Assembly: GCA_023823795.1 (NCBI GenBank)
Contig: CP085710.1
Span: 1,142,001-1,206,000 of the forward strand
Source: Bacillus sp. F19
GTDB lineage: Bacteria; Bacillota; Bacilli; Bacillales; Bacillaceae
Reading direction: 5' to 3'
DNA length: 64,000 nucleotides
A model generated the notes under the pieces. That model made no database searches, was not told the origin of the DNA, and saw only the letters and a list, made by a program, of their open reading frames with translations. Position numbers and translations under genes: made by a program. Below, piece after piece: positions 6,297-47,290 of this stretch. Each line of letters begins with the position of its first letter. Position 1 is the first letter of the stretch.

Positions 6297-6440
6297 TTTA
6301 AATCATTTCAATCACCTAAAGAAGCTATAATCGAGATGTAATTTATGTTCCAGGTTCTACCTGGGGATTTTTTGGAATAAAAAGTTGATGGGCTCTTTAA
6401 AAACAGTGAAGATTATTGAAAACAGACAATACCTGGATTT

Positions 6441-6640
6441 GAGCTGGTTGAGAGTCTCATATGTGCTCTATGATTACCCAATGCCTCGATTTGAGCTGGT
6501 TTAGGGTCTCATACGTGCTCTATGATTACCCAATGCCTCGATTTAGTGGTTGAGGGTCATACGTGCTCTATGATTATCCAATTCCTCGATTTGTGCTAGT
6601 TTAGGGTCCCATACAGCTCTATGATTACCTGGGATATGAA
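6441..6640. repeat. Tandem array, four units of about 52 bp
   Basis: Units start at 6441, 6493, 6545 and about 6593. The first two are exactly 52 bp, the third has lost 4 bp and the last is partial. Each contains GCTCTATGATTACCC or a close variant followed by CCTCGATTT. There is no open frame worth calling. Nothing else was seen in the 6297-6695 gap. A related partial copy occurs at 21412-21488. Confidence 0.85.
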
Positions 6641-14468: not shown

Positions 14469-14549
14469 CCTGAAAAAAGTACATCATAGCGGTTGAATGG
14501 AACAGAAAAACCGTCTTCACCCTGAAAAAAGTGCGTCAAAGCGGTTGAA
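14469..14549. repeat. Two related segments exactly 52 bp apart
   Basis: CCTGAAAAAAGT followed by TCA-N-AGCGGTTGAA occurs at 14469-14497 and again at 14521-14549. The offset of 52 bp matches the period of the larger arrays in this window, although the sequence differs. Confidence 0.6.
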
Positions 14550-32727: not shown

Positions 32728-33518
32728 TATTGTCGGGCAGATAAGGTTTCAGGCTGTTCATTGAATTCTTTTATGTGCTTCAACTGAGCCACAATCATAA
32801 AACTGACAATCACCAGCAGCAGCCATGAGCTGATTTTTCCGATATGGACAATTTCCCAGTTTTGCTGCTGATTTGGATAGGCCCATGCCCCAAAGAAAGT
32901 CGCAATATTTTCTGCTATCCAAATGAAGAATCCTATTAGAAAAAAGGATAAAGTAAGCGGCATGGAATAGGCAGTTTTGTTTATTGTGAATGATACAAAC
33001 GTCTTTAGGAAAACAAGAAGGATCAAAAGTTTCAAAATCCAGCGCACATCATAGATGTAATGATGCGTGTAAAAGTTTAAGTAAATAGCAGCTCCAAGTA
33101 TGACTACGATCCATAAGGCCGGCCAGCTGCTGATCCGCAAATCCATTCTCCTCCACGCCTGGCACATATAGCTTGCCACACTCGCATACATAAACCCGCT
33201 GTACAATGGCACCCCGAATACTTTGCTTATCCCTTCTTCAGGATACGCCCACGAACCCATCTGCACCTTATAAAGCTCAAGGGCAAGTCCGATAATATGA
33301 AAAACAAAAATAACCTTCACTTCATCTGCTGTTTCGTATTTGAAATGAATCATCAGGATTTGAGCAGCAAGACAAATCAGCAAAATCAGATCATAGCGGG
33401 CAATTGAAGGAACTTCTATGTATTTTGTCAAAGCGAGAGTTAGAAAGATAATAACCGGAAAAAGGCAGGACACGGCTTGCACGTAACCAAAGTAAAAAAG
33501 ATTTTTTAGATGTTTCAT
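32727..33518 (-). CDS. DUF817 membrane protein (YoaT-like)
   Basis: A 263-residue protein with seven to eight hydrophobic helices and conserved pockets such as MGSWAYPEEG, PLYSGFMYASVASY and FFGAWAYPNQQQNW. This matches DUF817, whose B. subtilis member is YoaT. Family function is unknown. The ATG at 33518 is preceded by AGAGGTGCTC. It converges with the WGR gene and is divergent from catE. Confidence 0.8.
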   Translation of the reverse strand: MKHLKNLFYFGYVQAVSCLFPVIIFLTLALTKYIEVPSIARYDLILLICLAAQILMIHFKYETADEVKVIFVFHIIGLALELYKVQMGSWAYPEEGISKVFGVPLYSGFMYASVASYMCQAWRRMDLRISSWPALWIVVILGAAIYLNFYTHHYIYDVRWILKLLILLVFLKTFVSFTINKTAYSMPLTLSFFLIGFFIWIAENIATFFGAWAYPNQQQNWEIVHIGKISSWLLLVIVSFMIVAQLKHIKEFNEQPETLSARQ

Positions 33519-33738
33519 AAGAGCACCTCTGGTAAAAGCGATCGTTTAAGCTTTTGAATTTAGATATTGGAAAGAATAAATATTGTGCTTTGATGGTATC
33601 TCAAGCTCCGCATCTCGCATTCGTATCTGCTTTTCGGAGCGGGCCTTGGTTCTATCCTTTTTCTTAGTATGGTTGAAACGAATTGGGAAGTCTATATAAT
33701 TAAGTGCTTTTCTTATTTGACAATTGTAAATTAATTGC
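33519..33738. other. Intergenic region with a faint repeat-like segment
   Basis: No gene was seen. At 33603-33648 the words AGCTCCGCATCTCG and CTTTTCGGAGCGGGCCTTGG loosely recall the dispersed elements at 27361 and 36290, probably a decayed copy. Confidence 0.3.
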
Positions 33739-33784
33739 TTGACTTCTTATGGTTACGAAAATATAATTACTTACATAAAGTAAG
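33739..33784 (+). promoter_or_regulatory. SigA promoter and operator-like palindrome of catE
   Basis: TTGACT (33739-33744), a 17-bp spacer and TATAAT (33762-33767) form a near-consensus promoter. Immediately downstream TTACTT-ACATA-AAGTAA (33767-33783) is an inverted repeat placed where a repressor would block initiation. In B. subtilis catE-type genes are controlled by the DUF24/MarR-type repressors CatR and YodB; such a site is expected here. Confidence 0.65.
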
Positions 33785-33818
33785 TTATAATCATATCATA
33801 TTAAAGGGGGATTCATTT

Positions 33819-34667
33819 ATGGAGTTTCATCAGCATCCGCATACGTATGTAGGTCAAGTCACCATTAAAGTTCAGGATTTAAACAGGGCATTAACGTTTT
33901 ATCAGGATGTGATCGGTTTTAAGATTCTTGATCAAACTGAAAAGCATGCTAATTTGACAGCTGACGGCAAGACGGTTCTTCTGTCGCTTGAACAGCCGGA
34001 AAATCTTTCAGCTAAACAGCCTCGAACAACAGGGCTTTATCATTTTGCTCTGCTGCTGCCAAATCGGTCAGACTTAGGCAGGGTCCTGCAGCATTTGGTT
34101 CAGATCAACTATCCTATTGGGGCATCCGATCATTATGTGAGTGAAGCCCTTTACTTAAATGATCCGGACGGCAACGGAATTGAAATTTATGCAGACCGTG
34201 CAGCATCAGAGTGGACATGGCAGGATGGTCAGGTCTCCATGGCTACAGAACCGCTTGACGCTCAAAGTGTTCTGGCTGAAGGGAAAGGTGGACCATGGAC
34301 TGTTCTTCCTGATGAAACAGTAATGGGGCATATCCATCTGCATGTATCTCATTTGAAAGATACAGAAGAATTTTATGGAAAAGGTCTGGGATTTGAGGTT
34401 GTCACCCGTTACGGCAGACAAGCTTTATTCATGTCAACAGGCGGCTATCATCACCATATTGGTTTAAACACATGGGCTGGAGAAGGTGCCCCTGCTCCGT
34501 CCGAAAACAGCGTCGGGTTAAAATGGTTTACACTCGTCTTTCCTGATGAAGAAGCAAGAACTAATGCTATTCAGCAATTGAAGCAAACAGGTGCAGACGT
34601 CTTGGAGGAAAACGGCGAGTTGATCACGGCAGACCCTTCCGGTAACCGGATTTTATTAAAAATTTAA
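33819..34667 (+). CDS. catE: CatE-like catechol-2,3-dioxygenase (two VOC domains)
   Basis: A 282-residue extradiol-dioxygenase-like protein with two vicinal-oxygen-chelate domains (about residues 8-128 and 165-280). Possible metal ligands include His in LYHFALLLP, His in GHIHLHVSH and Glu in NGIEIYAD. B. subtilis CatE opens the catechol ring and protects against catechols and quinones. The ATG is 33819, with AAAGGGGGA before it. The gene is followed by two repeat arrays and a damaged DoxX gene. In B. subtilis the catE partner catD is also a DoxX-type protein, but the remnant here looks like a different DoxX subgroup. Confidence 0.85.
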   Translation: MEFHQHPHTYVGQVTIKVQDLNRALTFYQDVIGFKILDQTEKHANLTADGKTVLLSLEQPENLSAKQPRTTGLYHFALLLPNRSDLGRVLQHLVQINYPIGASDHYVSEALYLNDPDGNGIEIYADRAASEWTWQDGQVSMATEPLDAQSVLAEGKGGPWTVLPDETVMGHIHLHVSHLKDTEEFYGKGLGFEVVTRYGRQALFMSTGGYHHHIGLNTWAGEGAPAPSENSVGLKWFTLVFPDEEARTNAIQQLKQTGADVLEENGELITADPSGNRILLKI

Positions 34668-34740
34668 TCATTGCTGCAGTCTTATTGGCGACGCCTGTAA
34701 GGCTGTTTTTTGTTACATCTGAGAAAACTGATTAAAGTTT

Positions 34741-34803
34741 GATTTGCACTGATTGGACATAGATTTACACTAATAGAATCTGGATTTGTTCTGATAGAGC
34801 TAT
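34741..34803. repeat. Three 21-bp units
   Basis: GATTT begins at 34741, 34762 and 34783. Each unit continues with a variant of CACTGATAGAA. It sits directly before the 52-bp array. A related single unit lies near 55890. Confidence 0.65.
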
Positions 34804-35838
34804 GGAGCCCCAAAACTGGGTAAAAGGTGAAAAAAGTGTTCCAAAGGATCAGAATGGAGCCCCAAAACCGGGTAAAAGCTAAAAAAAGTGTTCCAAAGGA
34901 TCAGAATGGAGCCCCAAAACCGGGTAAAAGCTGAAAAAAGTGTTCCAAAGGATCAGAATGGAGCCCCAAAACCGGGTAAAAGCTGAAAAAAGTGTTCCAA
35001 AGGATCAGAATGGAGCCCCAAAACCGGTTGAAAGCTGAAAAAAGTGTTCCAAAGGATCAGAATGGAGCCCCAAAACCGGGTAAAAGCTAAAAAAAGTGTT
35101 CCAAAGGAGCAGAATGGAGCTCCAAAACCGGGTAAAAGGTGAAAAAAGTGTTCCAAAGGAGCAGAATGGAGCCCCAAAACCGGGTAAAAGGTGAAAAAAG
35201 TGTTCCAAAGGAGCAGAATGGAGCCCCAAAACCGTGTAAAAGGTGAAAAAAGTGTTCCAAAGGAGCAGAATGGAGCACAAAAACTGGGTAAAAGGTGAAA
35301 AAAGTGTTCCAAAGGAGCAGAATGGAGCACTAAAACCGGGTAAAAGCTAAAAAAAGTGTTCCAAAGGATCAGAATGGAGCCCCAAAACCGGGTAAAAGCT
35401 GAAAAAAGTGTTCCAAAGGATCAGAATGGAGCCCCAAAACCGGGTAAAAGCGGAAAAAAGTGTTCCAAAGGAGCAGAATGGAGCACTAAAATCGGGTAAA
35501 GGCTGAAAAATGTGTTCCAAAGGATCAGAATGGAGCCCCAAAACCGGGTAAAAGCTAAAAAAAGTGTTCCAAAGGATCAGAATGGAGCCCCAAAACCGGG
35601 TAAAGGCTGAAAAATGTGTTCCGAAGGGGCAGAATGGAGCCCCAAAACTGGGTAAAAGCTGGAACAAGTGTTCCAAAGGAGCAGAATGGAGCCCCAAAAC
35701 CGGGTAAAAGCTGGAACAAGTGTTCCAAAGGATCAGAATGGAACCCCAAAACCGGGTAAAAGCTGAAAAAAGTGTTCCAAAGGAACAGAATGGAGCACTA
35801 AAATCGGGTAAAGGCTGAAAAATGTGTTCCGAAGGGGC
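34799..35838. repeat. Twenty tandem 52-bp units without any length change
   Basis: AGAATGGAGC or its variant begins every 52 bp exactly: 34799 (first, diverged), 34851, 34903, 34955 and so on to 35787, ending at 35838. Units vary by substitution (AGC/ATC/AAC before the unit boundary, GCTG/GGTG/GCTA in the middle) but never by indel. The core reads CCCCAAAACCGGGTAAAAGC, then TGAAAAAAGTGTTCCAAAGG. Apparent minus-strand reading frames across it (rich in FGTLF and WGSILLLWNTFF) are artefacts: 52 is not a multiple of three and no stop happens to occur in the unit. The array abuts a truncated DoxX gene. Confidence 0.95.
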
Positions 35839-35843
35839 ACTAG

Positions 35844-36230
35844 AACTCGGATCATCCCTGTTCGAACGGGTTTTCAACTGCTGTACAAGGCTGGTATGCG
35901 GCTTTTCTAAAACATGCAGCTTTGCCGAATGCTGATCTGATCAATTTTCTTGTTCCATGGGGTGAAACGCTTGTAGGAATTGCTTTAATCGTAGGACTTG
36001 CAACACTCCCGGCTCTATTAGCAGGTGCATTCTTGAATCTTAATTTTATGCTGGCAGGGACAACAAGCACAAATCCAATTCTCTACACCGCAGCTATGCT
36101 ATTAATGGCAGCCGGTGCAGTAACATGGTTTTACGGGGCTGACCGCTTTGTCATTCCAACTATCAAAAATTATTTGAAACGAAATCAAGGGCTGAAAAAA
36201 ACGAATCAAAAACATGCTGCAGCTCATTAA
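35844..36230 (+). pseudogene. DoxX-family membrane protein, N-terminus replaced by the repeat array
   Basis: Translation in frame from 35844 gives FSTAVQGWYAAFLKHAALPN, then LINFLVPWGETLVGIALIVG and further helices, ending in a basic tail at 36230. This is the C-terminal two thirds of a DoxX/thiosulfate-quinone-reductase large-subunit-like protein of about 170-180 residues. The first roughly 60-70 residues are absent; the frame runs back into a TAG at 35841-35843, two bases after the last repeat unit. A TTG at 35922 could start a 102-residue remnant but lacks a good ribosome binding site. Confidence 0.75.
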
Positions 36231-36289
36231 TGATAAGCCTGGACCAGAGGGTGAAAAAGGATTGAAAGGATATAATTTTTAGCGCTTCT

Positions 36290-36400
36290 GTCTAGTGTCA
36301 GCGCCTAACTTCGGACAGAACGGATCCGCAGTAAAAGCAAAAAGCGCATTTACTGGCGGATCCTTCTCTGCCTTTCGGAGCTGACCAAGATGCTTGCACG
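36290..36400. repeat. Dispersed intergenic element with internal hairpin
   Basis: The element starts TGTCTAGTGTCAGCGCCTAA and ends GGAGCTGACCAAGATGCTTG. Inside, GGATCCGCAGTAAA (36322-36335) pairs with TTTACTGGCGGATCC (36349-36363). It resembles the shorter copy at 27361 in its ends. It fits a non-coding repeat family of Bacillaceae; no transposase is present. Confidence 0.65.
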
Positions 36401-36407
36401 GTTCTAT

Positions 36408-36896
36408 TTAAGAAGTTGGAGCTCCCATATCAGACCATTCTTCTTTTGATGGCCCATAAGCGCCCGTAACTGGAAGTCCTGCCTGACGCATCAAAACAGT
36501 CAGCTGTCCGCGATGGTGGATTTCGTGTTTAACGAATAGAGATAAGGTCATCCCGTTTTTCCACTGAAAACCAAACACTTCTTTTGTTTCCTGCATCTTC
36601 TCATCATCCCAATCACTTACGCCCTCAAGAAGAGATTGAACCGCCACGCGGTATTGCTCCGCAATCTCTGCTGCTTTAGCCGGATGCTCGCTGTTTGCAG
36701 GTCCCTGAACTTTTAACCCCATCGGTTCAAGCATTCCTGAAGCCGGCACTAAATGCCATGCCAGATCACCAAGAGACCGATGCCCGGGTGCAACTTCCTG
36801 CTTTAGTGAGGCATCTGTTAAAGAATCCAGCAATTTTTGAGTGACCGCTGCTTCATTTTTGTAGTCGCTGATAAAGCTTTGTACGGTTAAATACAT
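36408..36896 (-). CDS. DinB-family protein
   Basis: A 162-residue four-helix-bundle protein of the DinB/YfiT superfamily. Metal-binding histidines are likely in GDLAWHLVPAS and in VKHEIHHRGQL. Family members can be thiol-dependent (bacillithiol) transferases or of unknown role. ATG 36896 follows GGGAG by 8 nt; the longer frame from 36950 is not favoured. Two further DinB-type proteins lie in this window (42238 and 45238). Confidence 0.85.
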   Translation of the reverse strand: MYLTVQSFISDYKNEAAVTQKLLDSLTDASLKQEVAPGHRSLGDLAWHLVPASGMLEPMGLKVQGPANSEHPAKAAEIAEQYRVAVQSLLEGVSDWDDEKMQETKEVFGFQWKNGMTLSLFVKHEIHHRGQLTVLMRQAGLPVTGAYGPSKEEWSDMGAPTS

Positions 36897-47161: not shown

Positions 47162-47214
47162 GTTATATAGCCTGGCTCTGTTTCAGACAAACGTCTTTTG
47201 TTCACAATTATGCG

Positions 47215-47290
47215 GAATTAATGGAAAAAGTCTTGGAATTAACTCGAAAAGTCTCGGAATTAACTCGAAAAGTCTTGTAATTCACTCACA
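47215..47290. repeat. 21-bp tandem repeat
   Basis: GAATTAA units begin at 47215, 47236 and 47257, with a degenerate TAATTC at 47278. The unit is GAATTAACTCGAAAAGTCT plus two bases. The rest of the gap to 47507 shows no gene. Confidence 0.8.

What the first reader, a model, noticed from the sequence alone, without database searches (positions are those of the whole stretch)
34799..35838. Twenty-unit, indel-free 52-bp tandem array in an intergenic site
Every unit is exactly 52 bp from 34799 to 35838, although units differ by many substitutions. Neutral arrays normally collect indels, so either recent expansion with conversion or selection on length is indicated. Some units are chimeras: the unit at 35787 combines the left part of the 35475 unit with the right part of the 35579 unit, which points to gene conversion or unequal crossing over. 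I cannot name a described function for it.
Basis: seen in the sequence. Interest (0 to 1): 0.82.

Follow-up and report, generated by a model that had tools for sequence, protein, structure and literature searches.

The report
Five-turn 52-bp satellite array, Metabacillus
This is one of many 52-base tandem repeats in the chromosome of a Bacillus-related bacterium, a known but unexplained kind of bacterial satellite DNA, and its fixed length appears to be five turns of the double helix, with A/T-rich steps on one face of the DNA around a mirror-symmetric centre.

Summary
The array is real: 20 units of 52 bp at 34799-35838, no internal indel, about 91% pairwise identity. It belongs to a published class, the constant-length 52-nt satellites of Bacillus/Firmicutes (Subirana & Messeguer), whose function is unknown. 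The genome (Metabacillus) has at least 24 such arrays in several sequence families. "Indel-free" is not special: orthologous arrays in two relatives carry 1-3 bp indels, and copy number at this site is 0, ~1, 10.6, 20 or 27.8 in five close genomes. Chimeric units and concerted evolution are confirmed.

New here: (1) AA/TT steps are phased at 10.4 bp in published, other-species and genus arrays. (2) Many units carry a 25-29 bp dyad, and in 61 of 62 arrays with a good dyad A/T steps lie about 5, 15 and 25.5 bp from its centre (48.5% expected); the window array is strongly phased, but its own dyad is eroded. (3) One dyad, TGTCCnTCAT-N7-ATGAnGGACA, occurs in 38 of 397 genomes, usually 52 bp apart in the loci read. 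(4) Arrays favour convergent gene ends.

Best reading: dyad-centred five-turn modules, probably architectural, protein-bound DNA. The phasing is shown; curvature is predicted; protein and function are inferred.

The parts
34799..35838 (+). tandem array, 20 units of 52 bp; consensus AGAATGGAGCCCCAAAACCGGGTAAAAGCTGAAAAAAGTGTTCCAAAGGATC (purine-rich strand = leading strand)
34725..34801 (+). degenerate ~21-bp repeats that abut the array on the left (seen by eye here, not reported by TRF in the window; TRF reports 2.1-2.3 copies of period 21 at the same place in orthologues L020 and L021)
35839..35877 (+). right flank still shared with G001, before a deletion of about 360 bp relative to G001
35878..36230 (+). 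remnant of a DoxX/DoxD-like gene that has lost its promoter region and about 54 N-terminal codons; intact in G001, G002, G005 (also open in G003, G007)
6427..6629 (.). second 52-bp array of the same class in the window (4 copies, other sequence family)

Best explanation
The array is a member of the 52-nt constant-length satellite class of Bacillales. SHOWN from sequence: each unit is five helical turns with A/T steps phased at 10.4 bp; at class level, where a unit has a good 25-29 bp dyad, these steps sit in one register around it; arrays are enriched between convergent genes; units turn over by unequal exchange and are homogenised within a species. PREDICTED by wedge models: in-phase repetition adds up a static bend, strong at periods of about 42, 52-53 and 63 bp and nearly absent at 47 and 57. 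INFERRED: length is held constant because only units of whole turns keep dyads and bend on the same face; the arrays act as architectural DNA, either as a stacked or wrapped site for a dimeric chromosomal protein or as a curved segment that captures supercoil loops at gene ends. Why five turns rather than four or six is not explained.
For: AA/TT harmonic 5 (10.4 bp) is the strongest of 25 harmonics in three sets: 27 published families (3.01 vs 1.72 shuffled, p 0.002), 9 new arrays from other species (3.01 vs 1.66, p 0.014), 13 genus arrays (5.02 vs 1.90, p 0.002); 2905 non-coding 52-mers average 1.43. Window unit 8.35. Dyad arms: excess at odd widths, peak 27 (z 13.3 in 27 published, 6.6 in 9 other-species units), even widths z at most 2.3 and below 0 respectively. 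Of 62 arrays with at least 7/9 arm pairs (18 of 27 published, 7 of 10 other, 10 of 24 own, 27 of 27 pattern-picked), 61 have A/T steps in the register 5, 15, 25.5 bp; 20 of 21 with non-TGTC arms; null 48.5% of 3942 dyads in non-coding 52-mers and their shuffles. Linker-only shuffles p 0.001-0.002 in each set. Predicted end/contour of the array 0.28-0.33 vs window mean 0.864, sd 0.097; the 15 lowest 312-bp windows all overlap the array. Context: convergent 30 of 56 vs 198 of 903, divergent 3 of 56 vs 201 of 903.
Against: The window's own dyad is eroded: 6/9 pairs, p 0.31 (G006 orthologue 8/9, p 0.0045; G001 7/9, p 0.06). No good dyad in 14 of 24 own, 9 of 27 published, 3 of 10 other arrays. In own and near-genus units even widths are also slightly enriched. 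Harmonic 5 is the top one in only 33%, 44% and 62% of the units of the three sets, and a 31.8-copy own array has 0.89. Shuffled units repeated every 52 bp are also curved (window rank p 0.185; published mean z -0.29), so predicted curvature comes mostly from the period. Wedge parameters were recalled. Arrays within a family are not independent. No protein was identified; PF00808 (histone fold) in 0 of 8 genus genomes. If phase alone mattered, 31- and 63-bp arrays should occur; none was seen in 80 loci, and only four rows of 40-42 bp. The site is dispensable: empty in G005.
Confidence: 0.5

Rival explanations
1. Neutral satellite: arrays expand and contract by slippage and unequal exchange, persist at gene ends because insertions there are tolerated, and the 52-bp length comes from the amplification mechanism, not from a function.
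For: Fast turnover: copy number 0, ~1, 10.6, 20, 27.8 in five close genomes; units whose nearest units are only of the own species: 18 of 20 in G000, 28 of 28 in G001, 4 of 10 in G006; neighbouring gene eroded in two genomes. Rarity between divergent genes is also what tolerance predicts.
Against: Same length in unrelated sequence families across many genera, dyads with a fixed A/T register in 61 of 62, and one dyad sequence found in 19 of 135 genera are not expected of neutral sequence.
Confidence: 0.3
2. RNA-level role: arrays are transcribed into structured or regulatory RNA, or act as (bidirectional) transcription terminators.
For: 52-nt satellites are transcribed in B. coagulans according to PMC8625621 (passages); dyads could form 10-bp stems; convergent position.
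Against: Little covariation in the best inverted repeat of 35 arrays (significant or not): 6 double changes that keep pairing and 3 that do not, against 185 single breaks and 66 single G-U changes; fold z -1.9 and -0.7 for two window units on the two strands; no Rfam family over threshold in 33500-36500; the order A-run/stem/T-run in only 4 of 62 dyads; in published and other-species units dyads are nearly all of odd width, although loop parity should not matter for a hairpin.
Confidence: 0.1
3. The dyad is a recombinase or transposase site (10-7-10 like a tyrosine-recombinase core, or a REP/BIME element moved by a Y1 transposase), and arrays are its by-product.
For: Arms with a variable 7-bp centre in 38 of 397 genomes (the arms are fixed by the pattern, the centre is not); REP-like position at gene ends.
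Against: No Y1_Tnp in G000, G001, G006, which carry the array at this site; present in 2 of 8 genus genomes, G003 and G004. No recombinase was tested for co-occurrence. The tyrosine-recombinase likeness is recalled, not tested.
Confidence: 0.07
4. Protein-coding repeat on the minus strand (ORFs of 125 and 176 aa).
For: Open frames 34953-35330 and 35347-35877 on the minus strand.
Against: 52 is not a multiple of 3, orthologues carry indels that shift the frame, no Pfam match over cut-off.
Confidence: 0.01
5. Assembly artefact.
For: Tandem arrays are often mis-assembled (general knowledge).
Against: Two-contig genome; separately assembled relatives have arrays at the same site. Exact copy number remains unverified.
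Confidence: 0.02

Closest known systems
52-nt constant-length tandem repeats of Bacillus/Firmicutes (Subirana & Messeguer 2021, PMC8161180, main text read; their 2020 J Bacteriol paper is not held and is known here only from citations and recall)
   Same: 51-53 bp unit, intergenic, several sequence families per genome, taxon-restricted sequence, copy number varying among relatives, function unknown.
   Different: The paper states no sequence conservation and no reason for 52; here one dyad is shared across genera and the length is tied to helical phase. 'curv' and 'A-tract' do not occur in its main text, and its one mention of the helix likens the 20-21 nt class to two turns.
REP/BIME elements of enterobacteria (recalled)
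   Same: Palindromic, intergenic, gene ends, arrays.
   Different: No Y1 transposase found in this genome; fixed 52-bp period; REP motifs themselves were not tested.
Nucleosome-type A/T phasing around a dyad (recalled)
   Same: A/T steps at about 5, 15, 25 bp from a dyad, 10.4-bp repeat.
   Different: PF00808 histone fold found in none of 8 genus genomes; bacterial partner unknown.
CRISPR arrays
   Same: Regular array in an intergenic site.
   Different: The whole unit repeats; no constant-repeat/unique-spacer structure.

Membership tests
52-nt constant-length satellites | unit of 51-53 bp, at least 4 copies | tested here: met
52-nt constant-length satellites | non-coding, intergenic | tested here: met
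52-nt constant-length satellites | several sequence families of one length in one genome | tested here: met
   24 arrays on the chromosome
52-nt constant-length satellites | sequence restricted to species or genus | tested here: met
   window family in 4 of 81 genomes of the taxonomic family, 1 of 6 genera, with at most 5 candidates scored per genome; but the TGTCC dyad of other arrays spans 19 of 135 genera
52-nt constant-length satellites | array length varies between relatives | tested here: met
52-nt constant-length satellites | transcribed | not testable with these tools
   no RNA data; reported for B. coagulans (PMC8625621, passages)
REP/BIME elements | REP-associated Y1 transposase in the genome | tested here: not met
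   no PF01797 match in G000, G001, G006
REP/BIME elements | strong palindrome in the unit | tested here: inconclusive
   window 6/9 pairs p 0.31; G006 orthologue 8/9 p 0.0045
CRISPR | constant repeats with unique spacers | tested here: not met
   all 52 columns repeat
Rfam RNA family | match over gathering score | tested here: not met
   33500-36500 searched; one match, 15.2 bits against 37, outside the array

The most novel reading that the evidence does not exclude
The 52-nt satellites of Bacillales are one architecture rather than many unrelated sequences: arrays of a symmetric five-turn DNA module whose A/T face and dyad centre are in fixed register, read by an unidentified, widespread dimeric protein that bends or wraps DNA at gene ends, so that the chromosome carries dozens of nucleosome-like or supercoil-capturing segments. 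Families drift in sequence but stay bound because geometry is what is recognised.
Probability: 0.33. Interest if true: 0.88.

Novelty: new member of a known kind. Interest (0 to 1): 0.64.

Why it matters
Why some Bacillus chromosomes hold dozens of tandem repeats of one length and many sequences is left open in the paper that catalogues them (PMC8161180). The geometric rule found here (dyad near 27 bp, A/T steps at 5, 15, 25.5 bp, five turns) predicts what should happen when the period is changed by half a turn, gives a bait for finding a binding protein, and gives a sequence signature in 38 of 397 genomes for phylogenetic profiling of that protein.

Tried and rejected
Rejected or weakened: RNA structure (little covariation, weak folds), intrinsic terminators (flank runs wrong), coding (frame, indels, no Pfam), CRISPR, REP/RAYT (no Y1 transposase in the three genomes with the array), histone-fold partner (0 of 8 genomes). 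No blastn match of the array in the plasmid or phage collections. A claim that the unit sequence is selected for curvature failed against shuffles of the same period. Quantised 21/31-bp indels, suggested by TRF rows of periods 21, 31, 72, 103, did not hold as a general rule: 66 of 70 indels are 1 bp. A first pattern that fixed GGGT in the centre suggested a kept loop; the relaxed pattern showed a variable centre. Lone dyads look like array remnants: in 6 of 8 the arm score at offset -52 is 10 or more of 20 (background mean 5.2), in 2 of 8 it is not.

Dropped rows: tandem-repeat rows below score 80-140 or under 2-2.5 copies; overlapping rows; arrays without a 7/9 dyad in the register count (26 of 88: 14 own, 9 published, 3 other); 4 arrays at locus edges in the context counts (2 of 10, 2 of 26); one lone-dyad locus at a contig end. 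Gene contexts rest on ORF heuristics, not a gene caller; the background for the TGTCC loci was taken from other genomes (own samples and 79 gene-chosen loci). Own-genome arrays were found with four array queries plus evenly spaced samples, so the set of 24 is not complete and is biased to those families.

Literature: searches listed nothing on the dyad or on helical phasing of these repeats, but only the top of each list was seen (for the dyad strings 15 of 301 papers), and only open PMC papers are held. PMC8161180: main text read whole, supplements not. PMC8625621 and PMC6749651: passages. Other papers: search listings only.

Full report
What is there. The window holds 20 tandem units of 52 bp at 34799-35838 with no internal indel. 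Units one to seventeen places apart differ on average by 3.8-6.0 bases, the first and last by 13; the mean over all pairs is 4.44 of 52. The array lies after a glyoxalase/extradiol-dioxygenase-like gene and before a truncated DoxX/DoxD-like gene. The genome has a 5.09-Mb chromosome and a 0.51-Mb second contig. One genus relative (G002, 93% identical in the upstream protein) has the contig length and coordinates of Metabacillus idriensis DSM 19097, so the host is a Metabacillus.

History of the site. Seven other genus genomes were compared. G005 has an empty site with an intact DoxX-like gene. G002 has, by eye, degenerate ~21-bp repeats around one 52-type unit. G001 has 27.8 units and an intact gene. 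G006 has 10.6 units and has lost nearly the whole gene, its array being fused near the gene's 3' end. The window has 20 units and lacks about 360 bp relative to G001, including the promoter region and about 54 codons. The two losses have different boundaries. The more distant G004 has no TRF row in its 10-kb locus; G003 and G007 have none between the two genes but a 53-bp array of other sequence downstream of the DoxX-like gene. Units cluster by species (nearest units only in the own species: 18 of 20 in G000, 28 of 28 in G001, 4 of 10 in G006), site pairs fail the four-gamete test (27 of 78 in the window), and G001 shows a repeated block of units. The array therefore most likely grew in place and turns over by unequal exchange.

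Known class. PMC8161180 describes tandem repeats of constant 52-nt length and variable sequence in about 30% of the Bacillus species studied, with unknown function. This genome fits: 24 arrays on the chromosome in at least two families, three in 400 kb of evenly spaced chromosome samples, none in 100 kb of the second contig. The window's own sequence family occurs in 4 of 81 genomes of the taxonomic family, all of this genus, with at most five candidates scored per genome. In 80 loci chosen by a gene, not by repeats (one of them M. idriensis), rows with at least 2.5 copies and score 80 had periods 20-21 (10 rows), 33 (1), 40-42 (4), 51-53 (10), 103-104 (4), 123-126 (3) and 182 (1).

Length. 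Across 25 arrays and 219 units, 157 are 52 bp, 54 are 51 or 53, 8 are others; 70 indels were counted against 891 mismatches, 66 of them of one base. Mean unit length of 35 arrays is 51.25 to 53.0 except one of 56.9, probably misaligned. The constraint is on the class, not on this one copy.

Helical phase. The fifth harmonic of a 52-bp unit is 10.4 bp. For AA/TT steps it is the strongest of 25 harmonics in published units, in new units from other species and in genus units, though it is the top harmonic of only 33%, 44% and 62% of single units (9.5% of non-coding 52-mers). It is also the strongest in 27 arrays found by the TGTCC pattern (2.85 vs 1.70, p 0.007). Two wedge models (parameters recalled) make the array the most curved DNA of the window; varying the unit length gives curvature maxima at 42, 52-53 and 63 and nearly straight DNA at 47 and 57. 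Shuffled units at the same period are curved too, so the period does most of the work. That would explain why length is constant while sequence is free.

Dyad. Inverted repeats are frequent in published units (15 of 27 at p below 0.05) and in other species (5 of 9), weaker in this genome (4 of 22). Scanning widths shows excess pairing at odd widths, peak 27, in the published and other-species sets, with little or none at even widths. The own and near-genus set (27 units) peaks at 25 (z 5.2) with some excess at even widths too. A sharper form, TGTCCnTCAT-N7-ATGAnGGACA, occurs in 38 of 397 genomes of the order, 19 of 135 genera, up to 98 sites per genome, with 0 for the reversed control. In the loci read, 38 of 47 (some overlapping) have a neighbouring dyad at about 52 bp or a 50-54 bp array. 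The centre varies. None of the five genus genomes in this draw, the window's own included, has this exact form.

Register. Of 88 arrays, 62 have at least 7 of 9 arm pairs; in 61 of these A/T steps lie in the register near 5, 15 and 25.5 bp from the dyad centre; random dyads do so in 48.5% of 3942 cases. This includes 20 of 21 arrays whose arms lack TGTC; the exception is a B. alkalitelluris family. Shuffling only the linker destroys it in every set. The window array, centred by the dyad of its G006 orthologue, has steps at 4.5-5.5, 14.5-18.5 and 24.5-25.5 bp and one at 9.5, although its own dyad has decayed to 6 of 9 pairs. Families are partly homologous and 27 of the 62 were fetched by the pattern, so the effective number is smaller than 62.

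Setting. Purine-rich strands are the leading strand in 20 of 24 own arrays (p 0.0015), taking dnaA at C1:1 and the skew change near 2.4-2.56 Mb; this may be plain replication skew. Arrays sit between convergent genes in 30 of 56 cases (background 198 of 903) and between divergent genes in 3 of 56 (201 of 903). Own genome alone: convergent 10 of 24 (p 0.007), divergent 2 of 24 (p 0.18) (ORF-based).

Mechanism. The sequence shows a five-turn, phased, often dyad-registered module in tandem at gene ends; models predict that it is curved. The inferred part is that a dimeric architectural protein, or the supercoil itself, uses this geometry. RNA, terminator, coding, CRISPR and REP readings were tested and are weaker. 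A neutral satellite with a length set by its amplification mechanism remains the main rival. Why five turns is not explained.

Noticed in passing
window 35878-36230; L020, L021, L022, L023: DoxX/DoxD-like gene truncated here, almost wholly deleted in G006, intact in G001, G002, G005: losses with different boundaries beside the array.
   Followed up: partly
window 6427-6629: Second 52-bp array (4 copies) of another sequence family.
   Followed up: partly
window 14473-14549: 77-bp fragment related to the GTGCGTCA/TGGAGC array family elsewhere in the chromosome.
   Followed up: no
window 47214-47287: 21-bp tandem repeat, 3.5 copies.
   Followed up: no
L120:1140-2003, L126:2672-3063, L092:2131-2752, L066:10974-11290: A further class of tandem repeats with periods of 122-126 bp in this and other genomes.
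   Followed up: no
L021, L022, L023 upstream of the DoxX-like gene: TGTGAAnnnnTTCACA-like boxes (Rex-like by recall) before the gene, seen by eye; the region is absent from the window copy.
   Followed up: no
loci L226-L255 and L259-L275: TGTCCnTCAT-N7-ATGAnGGACA dyad, often at 52-bp spacing, across families of the order.
   Followed up: partly
G000 chromosome, 24 arrays: Purine-rich strand of arrays is the leading strand in 20 of 24.
   Followed up: partly
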